From Sistotremastrum niveocremeum HHB9708 (taxonomy: Eukaryota > Basidiomycota > Agaricomycetes > Sistotremastrales > Sistotremastraceae): a stretch of DNA of 64,000 nt. The notes under the pieces are model-generated. The model saw nothing but the letters and a program-made list of their open reading frames with translations, made no database searches and was not told where the DNA came from. Location: positions 788,159 through 852,158 of the forward strand of contig KV419403.1 of the NCBI GenBank assembly GCA_001630475.1, given 5' to 3'. The translations under genes and the position numbers were made by a program. Every line of letters begins with the position of its first letter. Position 1 is the first letter of the stretch. This document shows, in pieces, positions 9,630-55,809 of the stretch.

Positions 9630-11287
9630 ATGGACTCGAAACCTTATGATGTGAACGAACGATTGTCCGAAGACGTTCTTCGGATGATAATGTGGCAATA
9701 CGTGTTCACTGAAAATCTCCAGTCGCTTGATCCATACACCGCTATCTATAACAACCGCCTTCCGTTAGAGGCGATCGTCGTCTCGTCCGTGTATGTCCAT
9801 TCTTTTCCTACTAAGGGGTGAACGTTTGGAACATATTATCTGATCTTGGACTTAGATGCAAGAAGTGGAGACAAGTGGCATTCGGCTATCCTGCCATTTG
9901 GTCTCAAATTCATTTCGCGTGGCCCAGGGACACCATTTTGATGTACATGGCGCTGCGTCGACAGATGCCACTTTCAATCGCAATCAATGAAAGTGCCTGG
10001 CAGTCGAACTACTTCCAGGAATTCCAAGAAACATTAGTAGCTTCGATGAGCACGGTAGAGAGGATGAGCGTCACATAGGGTAGCGGTCTTCTACCTCCAC
10101 CGACTGCTTTGACATCTTTCGTCTCGCGGCTGTTGAACCAAAAGGCGGCGGCCTCGAAGTTGTGGTATCTCCATCTTCTGTTCAGGGGTACCTTACAGCC
10201 AGATATCTCGATTGAGTTCCCAGAAATTTCCGTCATCCGAACACTTGACGTATCTCTCAAATCATTCAGGTTCAACTGGCATACTTTAAAACGTGTTGTT
10301 GCCGAGACTAGTGATCTCAAACTTTCCGAAATCATAGAGTTTCTAGGCGCAGCTCGACGCTTGGAGAACATTGTCCTCTATCATAAAGGCTGGAACTACT
10401 CAGGAGACGATGACGATTCTGAAGTCGCCGAAATCAAATCCCCCCGTTCGCCGGCGACTTTGCCTAACTTGCGAGTTTTCGCTTTGGAATGGTGTGGGAG
10501 AAAATTTGCAGATCAGTTAGTCCAGACTATCCGCTCCCCAACCTCGTCGACAATTGCTCTTTCAATTGTGAGACAAGAGAATGTCTCGATATGGAAGTCA
10601 CTTCCAGATTTCCTTCTGAAGATCCTTCGTTCAGCCCACACTCTTGCCCTCGAGATCATCGGGCACAAGCTCACCGTAACCCCTCCGTTCGCTCTCATAT
10701 TCCAGGCACCGAATTCTCCAAGATATCGAATTTATTTCGACGAAGTGCCGAATATGCGTATGCGCTCTCCCGCCGCACGGGCTGAGCTCTGTTATAGTCA
10801 ATTCGATGATCTCCTCCTAGCCTTATCTTCCATGTCTTTCGATGGCCTCTTGAACGTCGCCATTCACTCGAGACGTGTTCCGAACGTCTTACTCCTACGA
10901 CAGCTCGCTCACGCCTTTCGGGATGTTGAAAACCTCTGCGTTCAAGGCTATAGCGTCGACCACGTCCTTGAAGCACTTCAATCGAGCAATAATCCAGCAT
11001 CCGGTCACTATCCTTTCCCCAAACTCCGATCAATCGACCTACGGGGCTCACGATTTGACCATGATCACCTGAATACAATGCTGATGAACAGGAAGGGATG
11101 GGCCATTGATCTTGAGGAATTGAATTTGACTCTTGATCCGAAGCAAGAAGCTCGGGTGGATTCAAAATTAGCTCAGTCGAGAAAGAGTACTCTCCGAAAA
11201 GTGTCACGCTCAGTGTCAACTTACCAGGCCGAGGAGGGTGACGTCACCGATTCCAGCGAAGACGGCAACTGGGGCTGGGAGGATTAG
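9630..11287 (+). pseudogene. F-box/LRR-like gene, subfamily B, with in-frame stop
   Basis: Exon 1 is 9630-9790 and exon 2 is 9856-11287, joined at a phase-2 GTATGT...TTAG intron found at the same place in the two other subfamily B genes (37828 and 40143, minus strand). The N-terminus (NERLSEDVLRMIMWQYVF) is the F-box; CKKWRQVAFGYPAIWSQIHF is the typical segment after it, and an LRR-like region of about 400 residues follows, ending in an acidic tail. The frame is interrupted by TAG at 10076-10078; the same frame then stays open and matches the intact paralogue to the end. Either the gene died recently, or the stop is read through, or it is a base error. A truncated product of about 127 residues would keep the F-box but lose the substrate-binding part. 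Confidence 0.75.
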
Positions 11288-11873: not shown

Positions 11874-13579
11874 CTAGTGATCAACTGGACCAAATCGCTT
11901 CCTCAGCTCCTCATTTTCCATCCGTTGAGATGCCAGCACTTCGCGAGTACATCTCATAGAGGCAAGAATCCTTCTTGTGTCTTGCCACATGTTCCGAAAA
12001 TGTATGGAGGAGTGATCCATCCCTTTGTCGGATTCAACAGGAGCGTAAAGAGTGTCAATGGGATGAGAGACACTGCGCAACTGCTCAGAATATCGGCTGA
12101 GGGTTACTTTAGCGTTTGCCGGGAATCTGGAGGCTAAGTAATCGGCCACCGCACATGGATCAGCTATTCTGCTGCAGAGCACATGCATCGTCCGGAAGCT
12201 TGGGGGGAATGTGTACTGATCTTGTATTAGGGGAGTGTGGTGTGAAATCGAGACGGCATCCAAATATATACCGAAGGAAATCAGCTTGTGACAATTTCTC
12301 GCCAGCAAGGCTAGGCACGCGATAGTGGGGCAGGGCCCGTGCATTAGTCCAATTGCGCGAGGGCATATTTCGATGTGACGAATCTCTGGAAAGCTGATGG
12401 TGATCTTTTCGATGTCCAGATCGCTTAACACAGGCGGAGTCGAGCTTTCGATGACGAGGGTCTCCAATGCCTTCAAAACAAGGATTGGTTCGATCATATC
12501 CATCGAAAAGGCAGTTGGAGGTTCGTGATCTTTTTCAAATATCACGCTCAGAGACCGCAAGTTTGTACAGCGTTCTGAGACCAAGGATAGTAGGCTATGC
12601 GTCCTATCCATGCCAAGCAGTTCGATGTGCAAAGATGTCAGTTGAGGGCCCGCATTAAGTATATCCGGAGTTTCCAACAACAGAGCGCTGTCGATAGAAA
12701 GGTCGGCGAGGGACGAAAAAGCCCCAGATGAAGTGATGGTCGGTGGTTTGGGAAGAAGATGTTGCGATTGGTCGGGCCCGAGGAAAGATGTCCACAGTAC
12801 TTTCAAATCTGGCTTGCGAGACAGTACTTTCATCATTTCGGGGGTCACAAGCTTCGGAGAGAGTAGCGCCGCCCACAAGAATCTGAGGGATTCGAACGCC
12901 TGTAGAATGCTTTCATTTGGTTTGGGACTCGACTCCTCCTCCTCCAGATTCCAGTAGTGAAGAGTTTTAAGGTGTGGTGATTGACTGATGAGACGTTCCA
13001 AGACAAGCCAATTGGGTGCAGCATGACCCGTCACCGTAAGATGAGCATGTTTGATTTTCTCGTGAAACAGTGAGATGACCAACTGTGTGTCGTCATATTC
13101 CATTTCGTTCCATTGCAAGGACGTAAGAGAGGGGAAGATTGCTTGTCCTTCTGGCGCTGTGGCCAAAAGTTCAGCCATAGATCCAGGCGATAATGCCCGC
13201 GGACGGATATCGACAATCAACGATCGGATTCTGGACCTGTAGCGCTCGAATTTTGCCCAATGTGAGGGTTCGAGAGCCTCAACGAAGTCCTGTAGCAACC
13301 ATACGAGTATTAGCAGGGCATATGGTAAGAACGGAAGGTAATTACCAGTGTAATTCCATCTTGTCTGAGCTCAACCGGACAGAGAAGTGTGAGGACTTGT
13401 ATGAAATCGAAGCACTCGTGATACAGGAGGTCGAGGGCATGTTTCGATAGCGTTTTGTCAACGCGAGCGCAAGATGCGAGAGTTGGTTCATCAGCGTGTT
13501 CCAGAGTCATGCGGACCACTTCCGAGATCTGCCAAAAGCTCTGGGATTTCGCAAAGTTGGGTGTTGTTATCGAGTCCAT
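11874..13579 (-). CDS. F-box/LRR-like protein, subfamily A (intact)
   Basis: Exons 13346-13579 and 11874-13289 join in phase 0 (CTG|GTAATT ... CTACAG|GAC) to give 549 residues. Residues about 15-55 form an F-box-like segment typical of this family: SFWQISEVVRMTLEHAD, then SCARVDKTLSKHALDLLY. The rest alternates short strands and helices with Leu-rich spacing (ALETLVIES, RHIEICPRA), as in LRR-type substrate receptors. The closest relatives in the window are the genes at 25279-26969 (same exon structure, shared tail TREVLASQ/TREALASR) and 27637-29004. The C-terminal about 30 residues look coiled-coil (EVLASQRMENEELRKRFG). Role as an SCF adaptor is from family knowledge; substrate unknown. Confidence 0.82.
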
Positions 13580-14611
13580 GGCAGAATTGGGATGATCGAG
13601 CTATTGGGAGGCGACCTGGTCTGCTCACATACCACTGATTATCAAGGAGTTCTCGCATTGGTAGAAGTTGAATAACTCACCTATAAAAGAGGTTTTGAGT
13701 ATTGCTACTAATTATAATTTGCTAGACCTGATCCGTGTAGCAGGACCGTGTTGACTGCGGCAGCGCGAGGGATGTCGGGTATGGGTGACTGGATCTGCAA
13801 ATGAAATGGATAGAATAAGATGGGCTTTCAGAGCTCGCGGAAGCCATAATCATACCTTGGAGGAATTGTGAGGGAGACGCGGGGCATCCACCAGCTAGAG
13901 TAAGTTACAGGCATCCCTTTTCTATCTCAAAAAGCCATCACATGCTCATCAACCCTAAATATTGAGATAAGGAGCGATGAAAGATAAGAACCGAGAATCG
14001 ATAGAGTCTGATTGGTAGGATAGCGATACGTTTATGATTCGGCGAGAGGAGAGCAAAAATTGTGGATTTGGGGTGCCTGTAATTTCCTATGCGAAAGTCC
14101 GCGATGACACGTGCACATATTTCGTGATAAAGTATATATTCATCCCAAAAAGGAGCTGATAAGCAGGGAGAGAATTAATGGCACGAGCAACACCTCTGAA
14201 CGATAAGAAATAAAGTTTCGAGGGGATGTGTCGGAGTTTGAAAGTTGGACCGATGCGGTCAAATCAATAATTATAAGGAAAAACGTAGGAGAATGGTGGA
14301 ATCGAAGTCGTTTGGTCATATCGATTCCAATGCTCTATAGCCTGCATGGGCTGCCTTGAAAATTTAGCGCACATCCTCAAAAGAAGCCGAGCCGATCATG
14401 ACGTCAACCTCGTAGAGTATTAATTTTCGCCAAACCACGGAGCGATAGACAGAAGCTATGAGTCGAGTATGGACATTGGTACTACTTTCATTGAATCCAT
14501 TAGTTTACATTGTGAAACATCGGCAGCCGACATTTTCTGTTCTTCCGGTCAGAATTGAGGTCGACGAATAAAGTGAAGAAAGCAAACGACTTACTCGATT
14601 CATTTTGGACA
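13580..14611. other. Intergenic region between F-box gene and repeat-peptide gene
   Basis: Promoter side of the F-box gene and 3' side of the repeat gene. No coding frame is supported. A canonical GTAAGT donor at about 14592-14597 lies just 3' of the repeat gene's stop and could mark an intron in its 3' untranslated region. Confidence 0.4.
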
Positions 14612-15761
14612 TCAGTCGATATCCGCAATACCCCGACGTCCATGAGAATGCCCCCTTCCATGCGAATCGCCATGACGAGCATTACGCCTTCCATGAGAAT
14701 GTCCTCTTCCGTGCGAATCGCCATGTCTTGCAGACCGCCTATCATGCGAATGACCACGTCCATGCGAGTCCCCATGTCTTGCAGAACGACGGTCATGAGA
14801 GTGACCACGTCCATGCGAGTCTCCGTGACGAGGGGAACGTTCGACGACAGAGCGACGGTCGTGAGATCGACCTCTTCCATGCGAATCTCCGTGTCGGGCT
14901 GAGCGACGGCTATGGGAGTGTCCTCGACCATGAGAGTCTCCATGACGTGCACTGCGTCGGCCATGAGAGTGGCCTCGACCATGGGAATCTCCGTGACGGG
15001 CACTGCGCCTGTCATGGGAGTGTCCTCGTCCATGAGAGTCACCATGACGAGCAGCGCGACGATCGTGCGAATGACCACGACCATGGCTATCACCATGACG
15101 AGCTGAACGACGATCATGAGAATGACCACGTCCATGAGAATCGCCGTGTCTTGCGCTGCGCCTGTCGTGAGAGTGACCGCGGCCATGAGAGTCTCCATGT
15201 CTCGCAGAGCGACGATCATGAGAATGACCTCTGCCATGGGAGTCGCCGTGTCGAGGCGAACGACGTCCGTGAGAGTGACCGCGACCATGAGAGTCGCCAT
15301 GGCGAGCTACGGGGGATCGACGTCCGTGAGAGTGGCCTCGGCCATGTGAGTCTCCATGGCGAGCATCTCGTCTGCCGTGAGAGTTGTGTCTGCCATGCGA
15401 GTCGCCATGTCGAGCTTCGGGTTCAGCCTTCGATAGAGGAGTGTTAGAGAAGTGCTCAGTAGCGGAGAGAATGAGCGTACCTTTCGAGCGTTCAAGCTTC
15501 TTCCTCGAACTTCGATAGCTTCACGAGCTAGTTTGCCATGCGGTATCTCAGCCTAAGGACGATGAGCATCGGGTAAGTCAGAGATCGAAGAATACTTACT
15601 GAAGCAAGAGCTTCTGCAGCCGCAGCTGGTACCTAATAATATTTTCGATTACTATCAGGAATAAATCAAGGTAATGACGAAGAAGTGCTTACGGGTGTCG
15701 CTTGAGCGCAGCTCATGACGGCCGCGATGACCAGAAGAGAGAACTGTCTGTTGAACTTCAT
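14612..15761 (-). CDS. Secreted His/Arg-rich repeat protein, candidate Kex2-processed peptide precursor
   Basis: Four exons (15693-15761, 15600-15632, 15481-15552, 14612-15427) join in phase 0 with GTAAGC, GTAAGT and GTACGC donors; the last intron is 53 bases with a CTAAC branch site. The product is 329 residues. Residues 1 to about 20 are a clear signal peptide (MKFNRQFSLLVIAAVMSC, then AQA). Residues about 24-58 are an Ala-rich pro-region with basic sites (ARK). From about residue 64 there are 15 near-perfect copies of RHGDSHGRGHSHDRRSA, ending in GIADID. Every copy contains Arg-Arg, a Kex2 site, followed by SA, SP, DA, AA or NA, the X-Ala/X-Pro pairs removed by Ste13-type dipeptidyl peptidase. 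Expected mature peptides are about RHGDSHGRGHSHD. Kexin-processed repeat precursors are a known fungal class (alpha-factor, Rep1, dikaritin precursors), but I do not recognise this core. No UstYa-type or other RiPP enzyme gene lies nearby. Metal-binding or antimicrobial roles are inference from the His spacing. Confidence 0.88.
14633..15412 (-). repeat. Tandem 51-bp coding repeat, 15 units
   Basis: Fifteen units of 51 bases (17 codons), two of them lengthened: unit 2 by 2 codons (SPVA) and unit 11 by 5 codons (SVVERSP). Unit 1 differs most (HNSH for GHSH) and unit 11 has GRSH. The array changes mostly at third codon positions while the peptide is kept, which argues for selection on the protein. 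Because 51 is a multiple of three and the units lack stops in several frames, long open frames also appear in other frames on both strands; these are shadows. Confidence 0.95.
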
Positions 15762-15842: not shown

Positions 15843-15850
15843 TATAAATA
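15843..15850 (-). promoter_or_regulatory. TATA-like element of the repeat-peptide gene
   Basis: TATTTATA on the minus strand, about 82 bases before the start codon at 15761. Position and sequence suit a TATA box; no transcription start is known. Confidence 0.4.
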
Positions 15851-25278: not shown

Positions 25279-26969
25279 CTAATGGATCAAAGATGCGAGC
25301 CGTTTCTTCAGAACTTCAACTTCGGCCTGCCGCGATGCCAATGCTTCACGGGTATGCTTGAGAGCGTCCAGAAGTTCGCTCGTTTCCTTCCACAGCTTCC
25401 GATATTTGATTGAGTGAATTTCCAGCCCAACATCGGAATCGACATGCGGAAAAAGAATGTCCATAGTCCGAGCAACACTCCGCAAGTGGGGGGAATATCG
25501 ACTGAACGATAAAGTAGTATGGGGCGGGAAGATGGAGGCCAAGAAATCGGCAACGGAGGAGGGGGCAGTGATCTTGCTACACAAAACGTGCATCGTCTGG
25601 AAGGTTGTGGGGAATGTGTGTTCCGGTCGAGGAGAAGGACTCGGAGGTGGTGAGGAGGATGCATCCACGTACACTCCGACTGAGATCAGGTTCCTGCAAC
25701 TTCTCGCTATTGATGTGAGGCATGCGAGGGTTGGACATGGTTTTCGAGGCTGTCCAGTCGCTCGAGGACAAATCTCGAGATGACGTAACGCTGGAAGACT
25801 GTCAGCGAGCCTTTCGATGTCGAGATTGCTCAGCAAGGGCGGGATCGGACCGTCTATGACGAACGTCTCGAGCGTCTTTAAACCGAGCAACGGTTTGATC
25901 ATACCCCATGAAAACGGAGTCCGAGCAGAGTCTACTATTGAAAACATGCTAAGATGTTTCAAGTTTTTGCATGAAGTTGGTATCAACACTGTGAGTGACT
26001 TCACGTTGTCCATGAGGAGGATGTCGATATGTAAAGCCATTAGTTGAGGACCTCCGAGGTAGTATCCTGGGTAGGCCAATAAAATTGCGCAGTCAACAGA
26101 AACCTCCAAGAGACTGGGGAAAGTGGGGTTTAAAGGACCGTTTATCACCTCCATAAGGGGCCGCGGTGGCGCCTTGGGTCCGTAAAGAGTTGTCCATAAG
26201 CGCGTCAAAGGTTCGTGTGTGGACAGCTCTTGCAATAGTTCGGGTGTCACTAAATCGCCGGATAGCTCTACCGATTGCAAAGACTTGAGAGCCTTGCATG
26301 TCAGGCGAAAACTCTCTTTGGTTTGCGGAGTTGGCGCTCCTTGTGTGCCGTTCCAGTATCGGAGCGATTGGAGGTATGGTGCTCTGCGTGTAAGATGCTC
26401 CAACATATCATTGGCACATTTTTCGCTGCTGATCGGTAACAGGGTAACATGCTGCAGCTTTTCATGGAAAAGCGAGATGACCAACTGGCTGACCGCCGAA
26501 TCGATTTGCTCCCACTGGAATACAGTGAGAGAGGGAAAAATGGGTTCTCCCACCGGACAGGTTGCAAGAAGATTGATGATAGACTCTCTTGACAGCGTCA
26601 AAGGGTGAATTTCAACCCGAAGCGAGCGGATTCTGGACCTATAACGCTGGAATCTATCCCAGTGAGAAGGTTTGAGAGTTTCTGAAAACCCCTGCAGCGC
26701 AACAATTAGTGAGATACCGTGAAGGAAAAGAGGGTATCTACCATGGTCTTTCCGCCAAGCATCAACTTCATCGGACAAAGAATCTGAACGACCTTTAAGA
26801 AGTCAGGGTTTTCTCGATACAGGAGGTCGAGAGAGTGTTCCGATAGCAAGCGGTTCAGACGGGCACAAACTGCCAGAGTTCTCTTATCAACGTAATTCAG
26901 AGTCATGGTGACGAGCTCTGGGACATTCCAAAAGCTAGAAGGTCCAACGAGGACCGATGATGAGGCCAT
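25279..26969 (-). CDS. F-box/LRR-like protein, subfamily A (intact)
   Basis: Exons 26742-26969 and 25279-26691 join in phase 0 (ATG|GTAGAT ... CTGCAG|GGG) to give 546 residues. The F-box-like segment is SFWNVPELVTMTLNYVDKR then CARLNRLLSEHSLDLLY. The body repeats the subfamily pattern (LKPSHWDRFQRYRSRIRSL, PIFPSLTVFQWE, LETFVIDGP, RHLEICPRATG) seen in the 11874-13579 protein, and the C-terminus is again a short coiled coil (ALASRQAEVEVLKKRL). Shared intron position and tail show the two are duplicates. Likely substrate receptor of an SCF ubiquitin ligase; substrate unknown. Confidence 0.83.
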
Positions 26970-27636: not shown

Positions 27637-29004
27637 TCAATCATCAATGTCACGTCGATGCGCTATCAAGGTTTCCCTCGTTCGACTGAGACCCGAAAGG
27701 ATCGTATTTGCACGCCGCCATTCGTCTCGATATATAATCGAGGTTATTCCCAAGTCATGATCAGAGTCTGGAGGCGGGAAACCAGTGTAATCTCCCCTCA
27801 AGTATCGTACCTGGAGTGGGCCCCGAGTAATTTGTATCGTTGCCTGCAGGGGAAACAGCGCGATTAGGAAGTCCACTACCACGCTTGGTTCATCTATCCT
27901 ACTGCAGAGCACGTTCATCGTTTGGAAGGAACAACTGAAGGAGTGATATTCGTGGGGGAGCGCTGGAGGTGGGATAGAAGCATCCATATAAATGCCTATT
28001 GAGATCAAGCGACGACAATGTTGAGCGAATGGGATGAGTGATGCTAGTGTCGGACTTTGGATTTGTGGTTCGCCCTCTGCTCGTGGGCAAAGTTCGAAAT
28101 GCTGGAGCCGAGGAAAGCTACGGGCAAAGACGTCAAGATCCTCGTCGCTAATTCGAGGAGGAATACTAGTATGGTCCACGACAAAGACTTCGATGTATTG
28201 AAGGGCGAGAAGAGGTTTCAGTGTGTCCGCCGTGAAAGCCGTGTGAGAAATTGAGCGAGGAGCGGTCATCAGACTGAAATGTCTCAATTTGATACACGAT
28301 GCTGAAACCAATGCCAGAAGATCTGGTATATTGGACTCATCGACCACGTAGACGTTGAGATGTGTCAAGGAGGGCCCTTCGAGGACGTCCTTGGGCAATC
28401 GCATTATGCGAGAGCAGATGCCTGCAACGTTAGAGAGCGCTGGAAAGGCACCCTGGTGATCGAGCATCTGTTCGGATGAACCATGAACGGGTATGTCCTC
28501 AGCTCTAAAAGCGCAACTCCACAAATTCAAGAAATGTGGTCTGTGCGATAGTTCCTTTAGGACTTCTGGTGTCACTAATGTGTCACAGGTATCCAGTGTG
28601 TGCAAGCGAGGTAACGACTGGATTGCGCTGTGGAAATCCACTTCGATTTGGTCGTACCAGGATGGACCAGGCCAGAATCCTAAGGATTCTATGTTCGGAC
28701 ATCGACGTACAAGATGTTCTAAAAATGCGCCACATTCGAAATCGTCCGTTGCAGTCGAAAATTCCACATTGACAATCGTTGCATGACATAATAATGATGT
28801 CACGAAGGGCCGAGTGAGATTAGTGGCTGATTGCCATTCCAACGTATGTAGGAATGGAAAAATTGCCTCTCCAGCTGGTATAGTGGAAATGAGATCCAAC
28901 ATGGACTCACGGGACAGATCATCAATTCCTGAAAAATATTCCTCCGAAAGACGTCGGACTCTTGGGCTGTAATGTCGGAAGCGGTCTACGGTTGCCCCTG
29001 AGTC
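27637..29004 (-). CDS. F-box/LRR-like subfamily A, main exon only
   Basis: An open exon of 455 codons plus stop begins at a CTACTAAG acceptor, exactly where exon 2 starts in the two intact subfamily A genes, and in the same phase. It carries the LRR-like body (AIFPFLHTLEWQ, HFELCPRAEGEPQ, SRTRETLIAHRRDID) but no F-box. The matching first exon is not directly upstream; a suitable one on the same strand lies 2.7 kb away at about 31742-31965, beyond the assembly gap. Either intron 1 has been enlarged by a rearrangement, or the gene is split and dead. A Met at 29022 lies inside the presumed intron and is unlikely to be the true start. Confidence 0.6.
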   Translation of the reverse strand, partial: DSGATVDRFRHYSPRVRRLSEEYFSGIDDLSRESMLDLISTIPAGEAIFPFLHTLEWQSATNLTRPFVTSLLCHATIVNVEFSTATDDFECGAFLEHLVRRCPNIESLGFWPGPSWYDQIEVDFHSAIQSLPRLHTLDTCDTLVTPEVLKELSHRPHFLNLWSCAFRAEDIPVHGSSEQMLDHQGAFPALSNVAGICSRIMRLPKDVLEGPSLTHLNVYVVDESNIPDLLALVSASCIKLRHFSLMTAPRSISHTAFTADTLKPLLALQYIEVFVVDHTSIPPRISDEDLDVFARSFPRLQHFELCPRAEGEPQIQSPTLASLIPFAQHCRRLISIGIYMDASIPPPALPHEYHSFSCSFQTMNVLCSRIDEPSVVVDFLIALFPLQATIQITRGPLQVRYLRGDYTGFPPPDSDHDLGITSIIYRDEWRRANTILSGLSRTRETLIAHRRDIDD

Positions 29005-29071
29005 CTTAGTAGAAAAATTCAAAATTCATTTTACGTTTTCATTTCTCACGATAGGTTACCCGATGAGTTTC
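28986..29071 (-). repeat. 86-bp inverted repeat, left copy
   Basis: Spans the end of the F-box intron and the first 19 bases of its main exon. Its reverse complement recurs at 31546-31631 with about 4 differences over 86 positions and no length change. The copies flank the assembly gap. Confidence 0.9.
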
Positions 29072-29497: not shown

Positions 29498-30302
29498 NNN
29501 NNNNNNNNNNNNNNNNNNNNNNNNNNNNNNNNNNNNNNNNNNNNNNNNNNNNNNNNNNNNNNNNNNNNNNNNNNNNNNNNNNNNNNNNNNNNNNNNNNNN
29601 NNNNNNNNNNNNNNNNNNNNNNNNNNNNNNNNNNNNNNNNNNNNNNNNNNNNNNNNNNNNNNNNNNNNNNNNNNNNNNNNNNNNNNNNNNNNNNNNNNNN
29701 NNNNNNNNNNNNNNNNNNNNNNNNNNNNNNNNNNNNNNNNNNNNNNNNNNNNNNNNNNNNNNNNNNNNNNNNNNNNNNNNNNNNNNNNNNNNNNNNNNNN
29801 NNNNNNNNNNNNNNNNNNNNNNNNNNNNNNNNNNNNNNNNNNNNNNNNNNNNNNNNNNNNNNNNNNNNNNNNNNNNNNNNNNNNNNNNNNNNNNNNNNNN
29901 NNNNNNNNNNNNNNNNNNNNNNNNNNNNNNNNNNNNNNNNNNNNNNNNNNNNNNNNNNNNNNNNNNNNNNNNNNNNNNNNNNNNNNNNNNNNNNNNNNNN
30001 NNNNNNNNNNNNNNNNNNNNNNNNNNNNNNNNNNNNNNNNNNNNNNNNNNNNNNNNNNNNNNNNNNNNNNNNNNNNNNNNNNNNNNNNNNNNNNNNNNNN
30101 NNNNNNNNNNNNNNNNNNNNNNNNNNNNNNNNNNNNNNNNNNNNNNNNNNNNNNNNNNNNNNNNNNNNNNNNNNNNNNNNNNNNNNNNNNNNNNNNNNNN
30201 NNNNNNNNNNNNNNNNNNNNNNNNNNNNNNNNNNNNNNNNNNNNNNNNNNNNNNNNNNNNNNNNNNNNNNNNNNNNNNNNNNNNNNNNNNNNNNNNNNNN
30301 NN
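29498..30302. other. Assembly gap (805 N)
   Basis: Run of N. Any open frame crossing it is meaningless. The gap sits between the two arms of an inverted repeat, a common cause of failed assembly. The gene-free stretch around it (29072-31545) holds no recognisable coding sequence. Confidence 0.99.
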
Positions 30303-32611: not shown

Positions 32612-33665
32612 GCTTCTTTGCTCTCGACTTTGAGCTTGCCCCTGAACTACACCGCATTCATGATGCAATCGTATGCGTACTTAGCCACACACAGCCCGCA
32701 GCTCTCACGCAGAGCGCAGGACCTTGCACGTACCCATACGCACTCATCGACGCTCTGGTATGTCTCTATCGACTCAATTCCCATTACTCGTTCCAATTCG
32801 TTTGTTGGGAGATAAAGGAAGTCTTAAGGTGTGGAAGCGTCTCGCACCATATGCATGTTGATCACAAACTCAGACCATGAAACATCATACAGGAATCCTT
32901 ACTTGGCGCTTACGTGTCAAAGCACTGTCGATACATCGATGGTTCTGGAGGGCAAAATCAGGTGCGTTCCGAACTATATGTATACCTCCAACCATGATCA
33001 CTTAGACACCTTTGCAGCCAGTCCACCCGGATCATCTAGATACTCTCAAGGATCCCAAGGATTCTCCAGTTCAGATCATATTCCATGGGCGCGGTAGCGA
33101 TTTCGTTACTTCGATCGTCTTGAGCAGGACTCCAGTATTCTCTTTCATATCGCACGAGCTTGAAAGTAAGCATCACTAACCGCCTCGATACTGAAGGATT
33201 TCATTAATATGACTATTCTTATCAGCCGGGCCCATGAAGAAATTGTCACCTTCTGTCATCATCATCTGCGTCAGCGTGAGATCGCGACCATCATTTCAAG
33301 AGATAAAGAGATCCTGGGGTCCGCCGTCGTCCAGGATTAAGCGTATCCGACGAGCCTGGGACAAGACCCCTATGGTCCTCGTTGGCACGGATATCGAATC
33401 ACGAGCTGACCCTGAGATCGTGCATGGGCTGTTTATGAACGGCAACCATGAGGGTCCGGTTCTTCACGAAGAAGGAGAGAGACTTGCGAGGGAAATCGGA
33501 GCCTCGAAGTATCTTGAGTGTTCACTTGGGGATAGAGGTCAAGTGAAACAGGTTTTTGAAGAAGTACGTGATGGCATCGCGTCGGACAGTCATCACAAAC
33601 TGACGCTTAATCGACAGGCATTCCGGCTCATTTCTACGAAGTGGTCCACATGCTTCTTGCAATGA
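32612..33665 (+). CDS. R1: Rho-derived GTPase-like protein, motifs lost
   Basis: Exons about 32612-32757, 32893-32961, 33018-33165, 33226-33563 and 33618-33665 reproduce the five-exon structure and phases of the other family members. The second half is plainly Rho-like: SVIIICVSVRSRPSFQEIKR aligns with the Rho segment [20 protein letters not shown], then MVLVGTDIESRADPEIV and GERLAREIGASKYLECS. The TKxD motif is replaced by TDIES, and the P-loop and DTAG motifs are absent. R1 is the most divergent copy: its third exon has IIFHGRGSD where others have a WCCP-type box, and its last exon is short, lacking the RLGWN segment. The 5' end is open: no in-frame Met was found, so a further upstream exon is likely. 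It cannot be expected to bind GTP. Confidence 0.65.
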
Positions 33666-36150: not shown

Positions 36151-37828
36151 CTATATAATACCACTCCATATATCCGGGTCCGAGTCGTTATCACTTGACC
36201 CAGTAACATTACCGTCCTCGGCCTCATACATAGTCACCATGCGCGATACCTTCCGCAGAGTACTCTTCCTCAATTTGCGATCTTGAGGCTCCATTCGTTT
36301 TTCTTTCTTCCGATCGAGGGTCATCTTTAATTCTTCGAGATCATTGGCCCACTGCTTTCGGTCCGTCAACATCTTCTTCAAGCGAATATGATCAAATTGT
36401 GAGCCCTGTATATCGAGTGATCGAAGCTTAGGGCAAGGTCGGTTTTCGATAGAGGAGTCTTTGACCGCTCGAAGTGCCGTAATGGCACTGTCGGCGACGT
36501 ATGCCCGAACGGTGAGTTTTTCCACATTTCGGAATACTTTGAAAAGACTGTGCATGACGGCTGTAGTTGGAATAAATCTCGAATTGATGGTGGCATCAAG
36601 GAGTTTATCGAACATTATCGAAGTTAAATCTGCGAGAAGGGCGTTGCCCTGAGGATATATGACTTCGGCCCGGTCATTCGGTGTGAGCAAGAGGTGATCC
36701 CCTTCGTTGAATTGAAGGCGATAAGACGGTGAATCGGCAGTTTGGAAAAAGAGAAGGAAGGCCGGGAATGGGACGTACTCGTCCGTATGGACATCGATAC
36801 GAAGAGTATGAGCTGAGCGAAGATTGTCCGCAACGAATCTCGGGAGAGACTCGAAAATCGAGTCATCCTCTCGTCTCGCAATCGAGAGGACGACGGACGA
36901 AGAGGAAGGGAAGCGGATCCTTCGCAAGATTTGGTCCGCAAATTGATCCGAGCACCAGTGTATTTTGAAGTGCTTCAGATTCGGAAGACTTGTTGGGGGG
37001 TCATTCAATTTGGATGCGGCGACCTCGGCGTCGTCGTCTTCATCGCGTATGTATCGGCGATCACGATGATACAGAACAATATCCTCCAACATTTGAGCCG
37101 CACCTAGAAATCCAAGGATTTCAGATAATGTGAGATCTGAGCTGTTGACAATGACATCAGTCAGGCGGTGCCAGCTCGGCCGGAAGGCTTTCAAAGATAT
37201 GTTTCGGACGTTGATGTTGGAGAGCTCTGGGAAGTCAAGTGAGATGTCTGACCGCACGAATCCATTGAACCGCAGCTCGAGTTCCCTCAGCTTCGGTTTC
37301 GACATTTTCTTGGTCAAAAGCGAAAATACCCAAGATATCAAACCCGCCGGGGCACATTTATCTGTGTACCAGCCGTGACACCACTCGATACTGATCCGTT
37401 CCACGGTTTCCAGTGTGTCGGACAGAGTTAGCCCGAATGCCGGAAATTCATCTGCGTTCCAGGCCCGTTCGTCGATGGCTATTGAGAGCGGCATCTGTCG
37501 ACGACGGGCCATGTACATCAGGATCGTTGTCCGCGGCCAACGGAAGTGAATTTGAGACCAAAGGGTAGGGTGATCGAGTGCCACTCGTCTCCATTTCTTG
37601 CATCTAAATCAGGGTGAGATAAAAAGGGTCATGATTCTGCCCAGCCTCCTTTAACAGAAGGGAACGAACGTACATGGATGAGATAACGACGGCATCGAAA
37701 GGGAGAGGTTTCGGATTCCATATGATACTGATTTGACCAAGCGACTGAAGTTCCTCAGTGAACACGTAATCCCACATTATCATGCGTAGAACGTCTTCCG
37801 ATAGCCGTTTGTTCACATCGTATGGCAT
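36151..37828 (-). CDS. F-box/LRR-like protein, subfamily B (intact)
   Basis: Exons 37674-37828 and 36151-37603 join at the phase-2 intron shared by the subfamily (CAT|GTACGT ... TTTAG|ATG) to give 535 residues. F-box: NKRLSEDVLRMIMWDYVFTE; following segment CKKWRRVALDHPTLWSQIHF, where Trp-Ser-Gln-Ile-His is diagnostic in this subfamily. The LRR-like body shows repeated LKLREL/LPNLKHF strands, and the C-terminus is acidic (GNVTGSSDNDSDPD). It is the best intact reference for the interrupted copy at 9630-11287, with which it shares MARRRQMPLSIAI almost exactly. Probable SCF substrate receptor. Confidence 0.84.
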
Positions 37829-38474: not shown

Positions 38475-40143
38475 TCACAAGTCGGAATCACTGTCATTGG
38501 TGTCCCGCCATTCTCCCTCCTTGGCCTCGTAAAGAGTGACCAATCCAGCAACGCTTCGCAATGCTTTTCGCCTCACATTTCCTACGTTCTCTTCACAGCT
38601 TTCAAACATCCGAGGATCGATCGTGACCTGCAGGTGGCGTAGATCAGGGGCCCATTCTCGCCGGTTGATGAGTGTTTTCTTCAGGGTGACCGGATCAAAG
38701 CGACATTCGCGGAAATCTAGTTTCCGGAGAGCGGGGCAGGGGTGACGGTGATCGCTGTCTCCCGGGTCTGAAGCGAGAGCTTCTATGACATTTTCCGCTC
38801 TCTTGGCTCGAAAGGTGAGATTTTGAACGGTCTGGAACTCTCGGAAGAGCTTTCTCATTATTGAGGCATCCGAAGAGTATGCTGAATAGATGGAAACATC
38901 CACGAGGCAATGAAACGATTGTTGACCTAAGGAATCGAATATCTCGTCGGCTTGTTCTTGGCTGTAGCAATCCTGGATTTCGGAATCCATGTCGGAAAGT
39001 CCTCGAGGTTCATTGAATTTGATCTCGTAGGACGGAGAATCTATCGAGTTGAATGAGAAGGCGCAATCTGAACGCTCGGCCTCAATGTCAAGAACAACGA
39101 CCGAGCGGAGAACGCCAAGAAGGTAGTTTGGAAACGTCTCGATGAATCCTGCACCCTGCCTCCTGCAAATGCAAAATTCGACCAAAGAGGTGGAAGGGAA
39201 AGTGATGGCGCGGAGAATGCTCTCTGCGAGTGTGACTGGACACCATGCTATTTGGAACTTGTTCACCTTCGGGAGGAAGGTGGGAGACAGCTGCGTGTCC
39301 CCGGCAATGTCATCATATTCCTTGTCTTCGGGAACGTCTTCCTCCTCGTAGTGAACGAGCTCAATACTTTCTAGATTTTGAGCCGCCATCAAGAAGTCGA
39401 TGACTTCTGAGTCGTCCAGATCATGGCTCCTCGCCTTGACACGTTCGAGACGTCCCCAGTTAGACTTGACAGCTCTGAGGGATACAGAGTTGAAGCGAAT
39501 ATCGGAGAGCTTCGGCAGATTAGGAGTCTTCTCCGCGTCTTCCGCACGCTCGTAGAGATCACAGTGGAGTTGCCACAGTCTCGGAGCTGCAGTGTCCCCA
39601 CTGTGAACTCGAGTGACCCAATCCAAAAAATCCGTGGTTTCTTTGCGAGAATTGTAATCCAGATATAGGGAGTTGCCACATTCGATACTGAGGCGCTCCA
39701 CGCGGGATAACGAATTGAGTAAGGTTGGCTCGTGGATGGCGAAGTTCTTGGATGTAACAGAGTACGAGTTGATTCCGATAGACAGTATATGTGTCTTACA
39801 ACGGCTCGTATACATCCGGATAGTGTCTGTCGGCCAGCTGAGGTGAATCTGCGACCATATACGAGGATAGTTAAGAGCAACAGTTCGCCATCTTTGACAT
39901 CTGTTCATAATGGTCAGCCTCCAATTAGAGAGAGGATTAACATGCGAACATAGAGGAAACTAGGACTGCTTTGAACTGGCGACGTCTCCAAGATGGCCTA
40001 TGCGCATCCCAGTTCGATCTATACGTAGGGATCTGAACGCGCACGAGCGATTGAAGATCGTCTTCAAATACGAACTCCCACATGACCATAGTGAGAAGAT
40101 CGTCAGGCAAACGTTTTGTGAAGTCGGTCCGGAGTCTTTTCAT
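38475..40143 (-). CDS. F-box/LRR-like protein, subfamily B (divergent, intact)
   Basis: Exons 39950-40143 and 38475-39900 give 539 residues. The intron is at the subfamily position but uses a weak GTTCGC donor. F-box: TKRLPDDLLTMVMWEFVF; following segment CQRWRTVALNYPRIWSQIHL. The body has the same LRR-like pattern (LWQLHCDLYERA, LESIELVHYEEED, LRKLDFRECRFD) and an acidic tail (DTNDSDSDL). It is more distant from the other two subfamily B members than they are from each other. It starts 579 bases from R2, which runs the other way, so the two share a divergent promoter region. Confidence 0.82.
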
Positions 40144-43675: not shown

Positions 43676-44754
43676 ATGAGCTCGAATTCGGTCGCACATC
43701 CTTTTTTTACAGAATCAGTGGACCCTTTTGCCATCCACATAGACAGCTCGGGACTGATTATATATGTTCCCGTGCATGTTATCCTGCTGGGCGCTGACGA
43801 CTCAGAGGTTGGTACTTCTGGTCATTCGAAAGCTTTTCGCCTCACTGATGTGAATGATAGTTCTTGACAGCGCTTCTCAAGGAATTCGCAAGGGGCGCCC
43901 ACAATTACGATTCAGAGACCGAGATATTGGGGGGGAGTCACAGCTCGAATTTCCATGTGAGTGAACCTTCGAAGTCTTCATGGCCTCATCGAAACATGAT
44001 TATTGTAGCCAATACCTCTCAGCAAACTCCTTTCAGACCAGGGACCAAATTCAGAGCTCCAAATCGATACCTACTGTGCTCCCCCTAGGGAATGCATAGA
44101 GGGACGATCATGGGGTCGCCCACCAAGAGTTCCAAGCGCCGCTCAAGCGAATTTCTACTATTGTCTCAACAAATCTCGCCAGTCCATTCCTTCTGAGCAA
44201 AGGGTCCCTCATTGACTTTTTTCCGTTTGTAGAACTTGAATTCAAGCACATTCCGCCATTTTCGGTCCTCCTGCTTCATTTCAATGTCGCTTCTCGATCA
44301 TCGTTTCGTGAGGCGCAAGAGATGTGGAAATCAAGGCGGCCCGAGCTCAAAGAGATTCTCAATTCAAAGATATTCATCATGCCCTCCATTGTACTCGTCG
44401 GTCATCACACGCAGTCGAGATCCGACTCTGAGATCATGCACAAAGCGTTCACGAACGGCCGCGGCGAAACAGGTCCTATTCTTCCAGAAGAAGGGGAACG
44501 CGCAGCACGAGAAATGGGAGCTGTGAAATATATGGAATGCGATACCGGGAATGCGGTGCACCTCAACTATATTATTCGAGAGGTATGCATTCTCTCCGAA
44601 TAATCAACCGATCTCACTGACTGGAGGCTGACAGGTCTTGCGAATCGGATGGAATGATGTACAGGTTCAATTAGCTGGCTCATCGCTATATCGAACAGTG
44701 CATCGATATGCTTCGAGAAGGTCCGCCATTTCCTCCGGCATCCTTGACGGATAA
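43676..44754 (+). CDS. R3: Rho-derived GTPase-like protein, motifs lost
   Basis: Exons 43676-43807, 43861-43956, 44009-44203, 44247-44582 and 44635-44754 give about 292 residues; the exon 3/4 join is the least certain. The first strand is VPVHVILLGADDSE where Rho has the P-loop; exon 2 is FLTALLKEFARGAHNYDSE; exon 3 has LQIDTYCAPPRECIEGRSWG, a weaker form of the WCCP box. Exon 4 shows SVLLLHFNVASRSSFREAQE, IVLVGHHTQSRSDSEIM, PILPEEGERAAREMGAVKY and MECDTGN, so TKxD and SAL are gone. Exon 5 begins VLRIGWN. An in-frame Met at 43652 is an alternative start. Tail to tail with the GNAT gene at 45228-46550, 473 bases between stops. Confidence 0.76.
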
Positions 44755-50602: not shown

Positions 50603-51624
50603 GGTCAGTCTCGCGCTGGCGCCGTGAAAGACAAATTCCTTCACATCCGTATCCTCCGATCGAGTTCAGCATTGGTCTTCAGAACCTTGAATTGCCTGCA
50701 GCCGTCTCTTTGTCTATCAGGCTGCTTACTTTTGGTGATCTCTCATCCGTACGCCCAGGTTTGTGAAAGGATCTCATGTCATTCTGATAAATTTGGTAGC
50801 CTCGGAATGAGTTGTTCGCGGGACTGGACAGGGAAAGCTTTGGTGGGCATTATCGCGGGCTCAGGCCTTTGGTACGCATTCCTCACGACTCAATCCCAAA
50901 GACCTCATAATCCCCTATGTTTATTCCAGACAGTTGATGGCACAGATAGAAACATTAAGTTCGATTTGTCGTGTTGTCCACGAAAGGAATGCGTAGAAAC
51001 ACGTTGGGGCAGACCGATGAGAGTACCAAGGAGTCAGGCGAGTTTCTATTACTATACCATACACCGGCTCTGTAAGTTCATCTACCACGTTCGTATGAGT
51101 TTCCTAACGGAGAGTTACTCTTCACCAGTCGCTTTGAAAACCATCGTTGTGGTCTTAAACTTCAGCGTTATTTCTCGAACTTCCATTCAAGAGATGAAAG
51201 AGACCTGGGAAGATAGGTACTTTCATCTCACACAATTCTTCTCCTCGTCGGAACGTGCAAAGCCAATTCTTCTACTGGTTGGTTCTGAGACGCAATTGAG
51301 ATCCGATCCTGAGATCATGCATAAAGCGTTATCAACCCCAGGAGAAGGCCCGATCCTCCCAGAAGAAGGAGAACGAGTAGCAAGAGAGATAGGGGCGGCT
51401 AGATATATGGAATGTGAAACGGGAAATGTTGATCACCTCAACGCGATCCTTCAAGAGGTATTCCTTCTGCCATTTGCAAATGCTGAGTTGGATAACATCT
51501 TGACTGACAGACCATGCGACTCGGATGGAATCTCGCTCAAGATCGAATGACAGACACTCTTATATACCGAGCTGAGAAGTGGTTGACTGCGAAATGGTCG
51601 ACTTTCAAAGGCTCTGACCGCTAG
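50599..51624 (+). CDS. R5: Rho-derived GTPase-like protein, motifs lost
   Basis: Exons 50599-50748, 50800-50871, 50930-51071, 51129-51457 and 51511-51624 give 268 residues with all phases consistent. Exon 1 ends in LPAAVSLSIRLLTFGDLSS (P-loop position, no GKT). Exon 3 has IKFDLSCCPRKE then TRWGRPMRVPRSQASFYYY, the family's replacement for the DTAG loop. Exon 4 is the Rho-like half: VVVLNFSVISRTSIQEMKE, LLLVGSETQLRSDPEIM, PILPEEGERVAREIGAARY, MECETGN. Exon 5 encodes a conserved tail (MRLGWN..., AEKWLTAKWSTFKGSDR) with no prenylation box. Nearest relative is R6, including promoter, introns and tail. It keeps an intact frame, so it is probably expressed despite lost GTP-binding motifs. Confidence 0.87.
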
Positions 51625-52227: not shown

Positions 52228-54393
52228 CTAATGCTCGATCTCCTGATGCTTTAAAACCTCATCATTCGTCCTATGTCCCTTCCCAATAGCATTCTCACTC
52301 TCCTCATACTGATCCCTCTTATAGAAACACAGATAAAAGGCCATTCCTGCTAGGAACGATGCGATTGCGATGCCGGTGTAGTTGCCTACGAGCTTAGGAT
52401 CTTCGGCAACAGGTCTACATAATAAAGTTTAGTGAAATTCGACGAAAGGGAGGGATGGGACGTACGAGAGGGCAGCGTTAATAGCATTACCGATGGCTGT
52501 CATGAACAAGAACACGCTCATGACGACACTCTTCATGCGCTTAGGAGCCTTGTTGTAGGCGTACTCAAGTCCGGTAATAGAAGCGAAGATCTCCGAGATG
52601 GCAATCAACACATACGGCGGAACCTGAATCCAAACCGACAACGACGACGGAGTATCACAAGATGATACGAACGATCCACAAGGGTTCGTTTTGTAGATAA
52701 AGTGTTGGAGGACGGCGGAGTAGACCATTGCGAGTGCACCGAACATGAAGCCGAGCCAGATTCGGAAGATGGGGCGTGCGACGAAGCCCATACGTCTGAG
52801 GCCGGGGTAGACGAGGGTGTCCATGATGGGGATGAGGATGATGAGTGCGATTGGGTCGAAGTTTTGGATGAGGTCGTTGGGGGTTCCATTGAGCGTCATC
52901 GTTCCGGCCATCGAAACCAAATTGGTGGTGATTTGGTTGTATGAGATCCAGTAAAGCTATGATTGACTGGTTAGATTTGAGAACGAAGGGAGGGGAGGGG
53001 AGACGTACGGGGTAGAAGAGGAAGATCTGACATGCGCGAGCGGTACGCTTGACTTCTTCGACGAAGGCATCATCCCATGTGATCCAGTGTTCTCGGCGGC
53101 TGTCAAGAGCGCGACCAACGATCTTCTCATCGGCAGCTCCGGAGCCTTGAATGGTTTTGTGGAAGTGAGGCTTCGCACGATTCCAAATGCCGGTCTCCTT
53201 AGTCTACGATCACAAAATATATAAGTCAAACGAAATGTGAAAGATTAGGGAGAACGTACCTCGCGAAGGAAACGGATGGGATGAGTCCAGAATCCACCCA
53301 TGGCGATTCTCCAACATCTCCATACCTCCATTACGATGCTACCCTTAGGAGGTACCTTGTAGTACGCCTTTCGGCTTGCGATAAGCACGATAGGTGTACC
53401 GAGGAAGACGACGGTAGGGAGGAGGTAAGCCAACCAGAAACCGACATGTCGTTCAGATTCGGTGGTGGCAATGGCGGAGAGTGAGCCGACGTTGATGCAC
53501 CAGTAGAAGATGTTATAGATACGGGTGATAGTGACGTTAGGGTCGACGATGACTCGTTCGCCTGAAGGGAGGGTACGGACGAACATCCTCGACTTGCGAT
53601 ACTGATCCGCAACGAGAGGAGAGACGTTTGCTTTGATACCACCCGTACCGGTAGCGACGATGATGGCGCCGACGATCCATCCTGGGAATCCGGCACCAGC
53701 TCGGAGGGCCGAAGGAATGGAAGTGAGAGTGATGATGAGAAGGCCGATGAAGTAAATGAAGCAGAAGACGGTGATGGTCTTATATCGGCCCCATTTCGAG
53801 TCAGCGATGATCGCACCGATAATGGGAGTGATGTAGGCCAAGAACGAGAACATGTTTTGGAGGCCTGTCGCCGTCGTCTGTGTTCGGCCTAGAGCACCGG
53901 CAGGGGCGGGTGAGCCTGGGGGAGGTGCGCCGGTGCCTGAACCACCGTCTGGAAGTGGGTTTTGGAGGTAGTTCTGGAAGGGGCCTGAGAGACCATAGTA
54001 CGCAAATCGTTCGCAGAGTTCGACGATGACGACGGAGTATGCGGCGATGGGAATTTTGTCGGCTATGCGACGGAGAGTACGTTGGTCTTCTTCGGTTGGC
54101 TCTTCGAGAGGGTTGCCATCCTCGTCGACGAAAGAGTCGGCGTCGATGTCGGTCGATGAGGCCTCGTAAGTATTATGGTCGTGATCGTCTGATGAAAATT
54201 TTTTCTCAGAGGGGTAAACAGAAGTAGATTGGTCGTTAGAAGGCCTCAGAGCAGTGTCAGCATTGACGAGGTCAACTTCGCGAGCGGTGGCCATGTTGAC
54301 TAGCAGTAGCTCGTTCTCCTCGTCGTCAGACCTAGTCTTGGTACGGTGGGAGGGGAAGAGAGAAGTGGGGTTCTTGAGAAGACGATTGAGCAT
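52228..54393 (-). CDS. POT/PTR2 proton-coupled di/tripeptide transporter
   Basis: Four exons (53260 to 54294 or 54393, 53009-53203, 52466-52956, 52228-52414) give 635 residues from Met 54294, or 668 from Met 54393. Family motifs are present: ExxERFxYY in VELCERFAYYGLSGPF (residues 92-106 of the shorter form), the second PTR2 signature FSFLAYITPIIGAIIADSKW, and FYWCINVGSLSAI. About 12 hydrophobic helices are visible, with the usual cytosolic loop rich in charged residues after helix 6. An acidic about 70-residue N-terminal extension precedes the membrane part. It imports small peptides with protons across the plasma membrane, a natural partner in nutrition for the pyroglutamyl-peptidase, though not in the same cluster. 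The start choice is open. Confidence 0.93.
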
Positions 54394-55809
54394 GATATAT
54401 CCATTCCTTGCCTGAGCTTCTGTGCCCCTGTGTCGTCGACTAAGTGGAGGGCAGAACGCTTGGTCACTGTAAGAGCCAGAGTGCTCCACGCGATTCCTGT
54501 GATTCCCTTTCCGGATATGGCCGCCAAGCCGTTCCCGGTCGGCGCTCGGCAAGTCGTTTGAGCAAAGAGGGCGTGTTCTTCGTGCGACCTTTGCACTTGT
54601 CCATGCGGTGAGCTTTCATGCGTAATACGATGTGTTTCATTGGCTGATTTGTTTCACTTTGAACGTTTCGAAATTTGAAGAAGACATCGATAATATACAA
54701 GCAGAGGCTTGGACGCACTCAGGAGAGCCGGATTGAAAGGAGTTATCGGTATCTTCTCCTCAATCGATCCAGAATTCGCTCCTTTCTTTCCCTGTTTCAT
54801 CGCTGTCATCTCCTGAGCCCGACACTCTGCTCAATTATTTACTCCTGCCATCCCTCGGTTTCTCCATACCCGACGTAGCCGCTCCGATCCAATATCGGAA
54901 AGGAATATGCCGAACTCCGGAGCCGGAGCGGAAATTAGATCACCGATCGCGATCGACTTACTCGATTAGATCGATCTGGCTTATCGCCGAGCCGCGGAGC
55001 GCATGGATAATCTTGATTCTGACCTTCTGCGTCATCCGTGTTGTCTCCAATTGCTCGTGTGAGATGATAAGCATATGGTCATTTTGACGTCGTGTGGATT
55101 TGGTTCCGTTCCATCTGAGGTCATTTCTAATCCACCTGCCCTGATCGTTCTGACTAAAAATATCTCAAAGACTCGCTTCGTCTCGTCTAATGTCTAATTG
55201 AAGTCTCACACGACCAACATTCAGCTCATTAACCAGCATCTCGTCGTTCGAGTACTGACAATGACATGTGATCATCTGTTGAGACAATGACACCTTATCT
55301 CGCTTCTTAGTACTTCTTGCCATTGATTATGCTCTGACCGAAACTGTCAATTAGGGCCCAGTATCTCGTTTCCGACCCACACCGTCAGGCGAACTCCTTA
55401 TCAGACCTTGCGTCACACGAATTTACAACGTCTGGAACAGTGTCTTGGCATCAGTCTAGAGTAAGTCTTGAGACTTTCTTACCTTATTTGCTTCCGGGAC
55501 CGAGTGGATCGGCTTAAGCGTACGATTACTGGTTTCGTCACAAAGAATCTGGATAGTGAAATCTTGGAAATCCAGAAATCAGCAATTGCCGCTATCGTCA
55601 AGAAGGTCTTATTACTGGGAGTGCTTTACTAGAATTCATTGATGCGAGAGACGCACTTGCCAAGTTCCAGACCGAACTCAACCTCGGACGGCGTGAATAC
55701 CGTTGAATTCTTTTCGAATCAGTATATCGAACACAACACAACCTATAAACGCAAATATCCCGTTTCTTCAACCCATTCATCCTCCAATGGATTCCATTCG
55801 CCCTGCTGG
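54394..55809. other. Intergenic region, transporter promoter
   Basis: Upstream of the transporter and 3' of R4. Palindromic GATCGCGATC-type sequence near 54944-54955 and repeated GGAGCCGGAGCGG could be regulator sites; no regulator can be assigned. No gene is supported. Confidence 0.35.

What the first reader, a model, noticed from the sequence alone, without database searches (positions are those of the whole stretch)
14612..15761. Undescribed secreted precursor with 15 His/Arg-rich repeats cut by Arg-Arg sites
Seen directly: signal peptide, three introns in phase, and 15 copies of RHGDSHGRGHSHDRRSA in one frame. Known: Kex2 cleaves after Arg-Arg in the secretory pathway, and fungi release peptides from repeat precursors this way. 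Inferred: the gene yields about 15 copies of a 13-15 residue His-rich peptide. The core matches no peptide family I know. This is the strongest candidate for a new system here.
Basis: partly seen in the sequence, partly recalled or inferred. Interest (0 to 1): 0.92.

Follow-up and report, generated by a model that had tools for sequence, protein, structure and literature searches.

The report
Fungal His-rich repeat peptide precursor
This intact-looking gene encodes a protein with a secretion-signal-like start and 15 near-identical histidine-rich units laid out for cutting into short peptides, much like yeast mating-factor precursors; the precursor type is known, but this peptide sequence seems undescribed and its job is unknown.

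Summary
In detail: a minus-strand gene (15761 to 14612), four exons, three phase-0 introns each with a branch-site match, a signal-peptide-like start and 15 copies of a unit close to RHGDSHGRGHSHDRR. Selection at protein level in this frame is strong: between copies pS is 0.79 and pN 0.082, and third codon positions carry 924 of 1222 differences. Synonymous sites are near saturation, so the copies are old and look held by selection, not homogenised. Against this, a codon-usage score prefers another frame.

The predicted product is a 13-mer, RHGDSHGRGHSH[D/G/S], made by Kex2, Kex1 and STE13-like trimming. Cleavage is inferred.

This is a KEX2-processed repeat protein (KEP) of the STE13 type, already described in Basidiomycota (PMC6339444, PMC9769878). 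The His-rich core has no Pfam or PDB match, and four fragments of it occur in 0 papers of the library. Function is undecided between signal and metal-binding/antimicrobial; I lean to signal. New member of a known kind.

The parts
15843..15850 (-). TATA-like motif (TATTTATA) 82-89 nt upstream of the start codon
   Evidence: read from the sequence; a consensus match only
15693..15761 (-). exon 1: start and signal-peptide-like segment MKFNRQFSLLVIAAVMSCAQA|TP, cut placed by eye after A-Q-A
   Evidence: 17 of 1052 open ATGs pass the same rule
15633..15692 (-). intron 1, 60 nt, GTAAGC..TATTAG, branch match CTGAT
15600..15632 (-). exon 2: VPAAAAEALAS; part of an X-Ala/X-Pro run (TP-VP-AA-AA-EA-LA-SA) if the signal cut is after residue 21
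   Evidence: run of 7; 34 of 200,000 leader shuffles reach it
15553..15599 (-). intron 2, 47 nt, GTAAGT..CCTTAG, branch match CTGAC
15481..15552 (-). exon 3: non-repetitive pro-segment AEIPHGKLAREAIEVRGRSLNARK
15428..15480 (-). intron 3, 53 nt, GTACGC..TCGAAG, branch match CTAAC
14612..15427 (-). exon 4: AEPEA spacer, 15 repeat copies, tail GIADID, stop
14615..15412 (-). array of 15 copies, consensus RHGDSHGRGHSH[D/G/S]RR, usual unit 51 nt, each preceded by X-A or X-P; the range includes the tail GIADID

Best explanation
The gene encodes a KEP of the STE13 (alpha-factor-like) type. Shown by sequence: signal-like start, 15 copies with an invariant RR, X-A/X-P directly before each copy, and purifying selection on the peptide. 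Inferred: the precursor enters the secretory pathway; a Kex2-type protease cuts after each RR; a Kex1-type carboxypeptidase removes the RR; a STE13-type dipeptidyl aminopeptidase removes the X-A/X-P dipeptide; and mainly RHGDSHGRGHSHD and RHGDSHGRGHSHG are released as linear peptides outside the cell. Function, inferred and weaker (about 45%): an exact-sequence ligand sensed by the same fungus or another organism, because the first eight residues are invariant and the N-terminus is set by trimming. The main alternative function (about 35%) is metal-binding or antimicrobial. The confidence given is for architecture and processing, which that rival shares.
For: Gene model with consensus introns and branch-site matches. 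pN/pS 0.10 in the claimed frame, lowest of six. RR and RHGDSHGR in 15 of 15 copies, the eight residues of the latter each with 2-5 codons. X-A/X-P before 15 of 15 copies while X takes six residues; 17 of 17 Ala/Pro of the 266-residue repeat region lie outside the 15 cores. The two most variable positions, 13 (D/G/S) and X, sit either side of the RR. If the signal is cut after residue 21, the leader starts TP-VP-AA-AA-EA-LA-SA. Published precedent: Pichia cut the RR site of a Coprinopsis KEP and removed its XA/XP motif, and Pleurotus KEPs with putative XA/XP motifs gave detected short peptides (PMC9769878, passages).
Against: No transcript, peptide or trained signal predictor was available. A codon-usage score from nine window ORFs prefers another frame of the same strand (39.2 against 6.4; synonymous-only 21.0 against 15.1). 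Copies 12 (SVVERSP before RHGD) and 1 (RK site and AEPEA) do not give the 13-mer under strict rules. Whether this genome has KEX2, KEX1 and STE13 could not be checked, since no genome is held. No relative was found, though neither collection is a fungal one. The copies descend from a common unit, so 15 of 15 are not 15 independent observations.
Confidence: 0.8

Rival explanations
1. Same precursor and processing, but the released peptide works by chemistry rather than by a receptor: a His-rich Cu/Zn-binding or antimicrobial peptide, in the manner of alloferon or histatins (the latter recalled). Trimming would give an N-terminal Arg-His, a potential copper site (recalled chemistry).
For: 4 His in the 13-mer and no hydrophobic residue in 225 core residues. 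Alloferon, a linear insect 13-mer rich in His-Gly, is described as an antimicrobial peptide, and a cited title reports its Cu(II) complexes (PMC10904621, passages).
Against: A generic chelator should tolerate changes at Gly, Asp and Ser, but positions 1-8, 11 and 12 are invariant in 15 copies. Two copies lose His10. No metal-related family was matched among 19 neighbour ORFs, but 11 of the 19 matched nothing at all.
Confidence: 0.35
2. The protein acts uncut, as a secreted or wall-associated His/Arg/Gly-rich disordered protein; RR and Ala are just part of the repeat.
For: Core composition without hydrophobic residues suggests disorder. Secreted fungal repeat proteins without Kex2 sites are mentioned in PMC5293756 (passages).
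Against: Invariant RR, followed by a free X and then Ala or Pro only, is a processing fingerprint and not expected of a structural repeat.
Confidence: 0.12
3. Cyclised RiPP precursor (dikaritin/ustiloxin type).
For: Same precursor layout (PMC7329392, passages).
Against: No Tyr, Trp or Phe in the core. None of 19 neighbour ORFs scanned matched DUF3328; only two HxxHC hits (motif recalled) in 771 ORFs of 45 or more residues, one antisense to the array. The STE13 signature is reported absent from precursors of cyclic toxins and epichloecyclins (PMC6339444, section 15).
Confidence: 0.02
4. Not a gene in this frame: a DNA-level tandem repeat, or a gene in another frame.
For: Other frames are also open over long stretches, and a codon-usage score prefers the minus frame 14503-15306.
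Against: That frame has pN/pS 3.2 and the claimed one 0.10; third positions carry 924 of 1222 differences, 0 of 100,000 shuffles. The codon score rewards ordinary amino-acid make-up, which a His/Arg-rich array lacks.
Confidence: 0.02

Closest known systems
KEPs with a STE13 signature in Basidiomycota (Le Marquer 2019, PMC6339444; Vogt 2022, PMC9769878)
   Same: Signal peptide, repeats separated by dibasic sites, XA or XP after the dibasic site. Peptides detected from Pleurotus members, and from a Coprinopsis member expressed in Pichia.
   Different: The STE13-type cores named in the parts I read (SGVAADW, QYKAPSW, QMRPPSW, QSWGGCGGRGTPCW) end in Trp. This core is His/Gly/Arg/Asp/Ser with no Trp or Cys. 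Supplementary tables were not readable here.
Ascomycete alpha-factor-type pheromone precursors
   Same: Processing layout Kex2, Kex1, STE13; 13 residues lies in their 9-24 residue range (PMC6339444).
   Different: No Pfam match for the precursor. Basidiomycete mating pheromones are a-type (PMC6339444).
KEP types G-3 and G-8 with a di-histidine motif (Umemura 2020, PMC7329392, passages)
   Same: His in a repeated Kex2-bounded peptide.
   Different: Our core has no HH; those types are accompanied by DUF3328 genes, none matched here.
Alloferon (insect; PMC10904621, passages)
   Same: Linear 13-mer, four His, Gly-rich.
   Different: Insect origin, no Arg or Asp; resemblance of composition only, homology not tested.
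Rep1 of Ustilago maydis
   Same: Multi-copy Kex2-processed secreted precursor.
   Different: No STE13 signature in Rep1 (PMC6339444); its peptides form amyloid-like fibrils (PMC9769878), whereas this core has no hydrophobic residue.

Membership tests
KEP (KEX2-processed repeat protein) | N-terminal secretion signal | tested here: met
   own rule-based filter only; no trained predictor
KEP (KEX2-processed repeat protein) | at least three near-identical repeats | tested here: met
   15 copies
KEP (KEX2-processed repeat protein) | repeats separated by KR/RR/KK | tested here: met
   RR in 15 of 15 copies
KEP (KEX2-processed repeat protein) | peptides actually released | not testable with these tools
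   needs mass spectrometry
STE13-type KEP | XA or XP after the Kex2 dipeptide | tested here: met
   13 of 14 inter-copy spacers begin X-A/X-P; 15 of 15 copies are directly preceded by one
Ascomycete alpha-type pheromone | match to the mating-factor Pfam models or known pheromone cores | tested here: not met
   0 Pfam families at E 0.01; cores compared by eye only
Basidiomycete a-type pheromone | C-terminal CaaX, no signal peptide (recalled) | tested here: not met
   C-terminus GIADID, signal-like start
Dikaritin / ustiloxin-type RiPP | Tyr-bearing core | tested here: not met
   core letters are only R, H, G, S, D and one N
Dikaritin / ustiloxin-type RiPP | DUF3328 (UstY) gene within 15 genes | tested here: inconclusive
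   none among 19 neighbour ORFs and no convincing HxxHC frame; introns may hide one and one flank is only 14.6 kb
Alloferon | homologous precursor | not tested
   composition resemblance only

The most novel reading that the evidence does not exclude
The gene founds a family of His-rich 13-mer fungal peptides whose N-terminus (Arg-His) is unmasked only by STE13-type trimming, giving a secreted copper/zinc-responsive ligand. Each of the 15 copies is individually constrained because off-sequence copies would interfere.
Probability: 0.15. Interest if true: 0.7.

Novelty: new member of a known kind. Interest (0 to 1): 0.42.

Why it matters
STE13-type precursors in basidiomycetes are a small open puzzle: their layout is that of mating factors, but mating in that phylum uses another kind of peptide (PMC6339444), and knockouts of six Coprinopsis KEPs showed no apparent phenotype (PMC9769878, Discussion). 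This precursor makes one clear prediction of a synthesisable 13-mer. Its copies are near synonymous saturation yet almost identical in protein, which points to long selection on the peptide itself.

Tried and rejected
Relatives: searches with exon 4 (271 residues) in genome contigs and viral contigs gave 390 and 11 pattern matches, none confirmed by tblastn. Neither is a fungal collection, so this says little about how widespread the gene is. PDB with exon 4: 0 matches up to E 1. Pfam with the whole precursor: 0 families at E 0.01. Own genome: none held, so paralogues and the KEX2, KEX1 and STE13 genes could not be looked for.

Papers: four core fragments in 0 papers. A five-term search on His-rich Kex2 repeat peptides listed one paper on mycorrhizal fungi (passages read), and a variant listed the same one. 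A search on concerted evolution of pheromone repeats found 0 with four of five terms. Two alloferon searches led to the review seen. Supplementary tables of the KEP surveys could not be read, so this very motif could be listed there.

Rejected: DNA-level repeat or another frame (although codon usage points the other way); dikaritin; a-type pheromone; Rep1-like amyloid peptide (0 hydrophobic residues of 225). Recent expansion or gene conversion is rejected as the main cause of identity: same-residue codons differ in 0.594 of comparisons against 0.635 (sd 0.010) for random dealing. Saturation is not complete, as 0 of 300 dealings were as low, and near copies are slightly more alike (42 of 5000 permutations; lag means 0.53 to 0.66), so some exchange or later duplication did occur. 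GC3 of the gene is 0.37 against 0.53 in nine window ORFs; not interpreted.

Full report
What is there. The minus strand from 15761 to 14612 holds a complete-looking gene. Four exons (69, 33, 72 and 816 nt with the stop) are joined by introns of 60, 47 and 53 nt, all GT-AG and phase 0. Three CTRAY branch-site matches occur in the first 420 nt, one in each intron, 20 to 29 nt before the acceptor. The protein has 329 residues. Its start, MKFNRQFSLLVIAAVMSCAQA, has basic residues, a hydrophobic stretch and, by eye, A-Q-A before a likely cut. Of 1052 open ATGs in the window 17 pass the same simple rule; the rule's own first allowed cut is after Ser17. It is no substitute for a trained predictor.

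Is it coding, in this frame? The 15 copies were compared in all six frames. In the claimed frame pS is 0.79 and pN 0.082, a ratio of 0.10. The other five give 3.2, 3.0, 1.4, 0.29 and 2.6. Differences by codon position are 200, 98 and 924; none of 100,000 column shuffles reached the third-position share. Eight residues, RHGDSHGR, are invariant in 15 of 15 copies although each uses two to five codons. One result goes the other way: a codon-usage score trained on nine window ORFs ranks the minus frame 14503-15306 above the claimed one (39.2 against 6.4 for exon 4; 21.0 against 15.1 when only synonymous choice counts). That frame has pN/pS 3.2, so I trust the selection test more, but the score gives the claimed frame no help.

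How old is the array? At columns where two copies carry the same residue, codons differ in 0.594 of comparisons. Dealing codons at random within the array gives 0.635 with sd 0.010, and 0 of 300 dealings were as low as observed. The copies are thus near, but not at, synonymous saturation. Near copies are somewhat more alike (42 of 5000 permutations reach the correlation). Homogenisation by gene conversion would have erased synonymous differences too, so the amino-acid identity is best explained by selection on each copy. This is an inference; selection for codon diversity, to keep a tandem array stable, would leave a similar mark.

The second processing signal. The two residues before RHGD are EA, DA, VA, SP, SA, SA, SA, AA, SA, SA, SA, SP, SA, SA, NA: X-Ala or X-Pro in 15 of 15. 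X takes six different residues while the second position takes only Ala (13) or Pro (2). In the 266-residue repeat region 17 of 17 Ala/Pro lie outside the cores. XA or XP after the Kex2 dipeptide is the published STE13 signature (PMC6339444: sections 4 and 15 read). If the signal is cut after residue 21, the next residues, TP-VP-AA-AA-EA-LA-SA, form a run of seven such dipeptides; 34 of 200,000 shuffles of the 37-residue leader and 2147 of 200,000 shuffles of those 14 residues do so. This last pattern was noticed after the fact and hangs on that cut.

Predicted products. With cuts after RR, removal of terminal Arg/Lys and removal of X-A/X-P, 13 of 15 copies give a 13-mer starting RHGD: six RHGDSHGRGHSHD, five RHGDSHGRGHSHG, one ending in S and one with Arg in place of His10. 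Copy 1 stays attached to the leader because only an RK precedes it, and copy 12 keeps SVVERSP. In both, X-A or X-P still directly precedes RHGD, so a cut elsewhere upstream could rescue them; that is speculation. The two most variable positions are the last residue of the product and the discarded X, either side of the RR.

What it works like. The layout is that of alpha-factor precursors and of STE13-type KEPs. The 225 core residues are only R, H, G, S, D and one N, so a folded domain or an amphipathic amyloid peptide is unlikely. Two functions fit. Exact-sequence conservation and a defined N-terminus favour a recognised ligand. Four histidines, and an N-terminal Arg-His after trimming, favour metal binding; alloferon, an insect 13-mer of similar make-up, is described as an antimicrobial peptide with reported Cu(II) complexes (PMC10904621, passages and a reference title). 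I favour the ligand reading slightly.

Membership. It meets the KEP definition and the STE13 signature at sequence level. It is not shown to be an ascomycete pheromone (no Pfam match), an a-type pheromone (C-terminus GIADID), a dikaritin (no Tyr; no DUF3328 among 19 neighbour ORFs) or a Rep1-like repellent.

Surroundings. Of 19 neighbour ORFs given to Pfam, 11 matched nothing. Matches above the curated cut-off are a POT-family peptide transporter about 37 kb away (two ORFs) and a Ras-family ORF; an F-box-like and a Fungal_trans match (E 0.083) are below cut-off. None points to a dedicated cluster, but only part of the window was scanned. The species is unknown; fungal origin is inferred from the introns, the precursor type and that weak match, and basidiomycete origin is unverified.

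Novelty. The kind is known: 7878 KEPs have been counted (PMC7329392, passages) and STE13-type ones described in basidiomycetes (PMC6339444, PMC9769878). The core is new as far as reach; the surveys' supplementary tables could not be read.

Noticed in passing
14572-15447 (+): A 291-codon antisense open frame covers the array; copies compared in the three antisense frames show pN/pS 0.29-2.6, so it looks like a shadow of the codon structure.
   Followed up: partly
11877-13370, 25282-26802, 27640-29025 (-): Three long ORFs related to one another (32-45% identity over 461-494 aligned positions); no Pfam family at the curated cut-off.
   Followed up: partly
10079-11284 (+), 36154-37608 (-), 38478-39959 (-): A second set of three related ORFs (32-47% identity); one has an F-box-like match below cut-off.
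   Followed up: partly
33213-33662, 44100-44600, 50603-51547 (+), 60358-60885 (-): Ras-like ORFs: the first matches the Ras family (E 3e-9), the second just below cut-off (E 5e-4). 50603 is 54% identical to 44100 over 110 and 61% to 60358 over 166 positions, so local duplicates.
   Followed up: partly
52429-54615 (-): POT/PTR2-family oligopeptide transporter split over at least two ORFs.
   Followed up: partly
29498-30302: Run of N; it probably accounts for much of the low GC reported at 28-32 kb.
   Followed up: partly
14612-15761 (-): Codon use of the gene is skewed (CGT, TCT, GCT; GC3 0.37) against nine other window ORFs (0.53); could mean high expression, untested.
   Followed up: no
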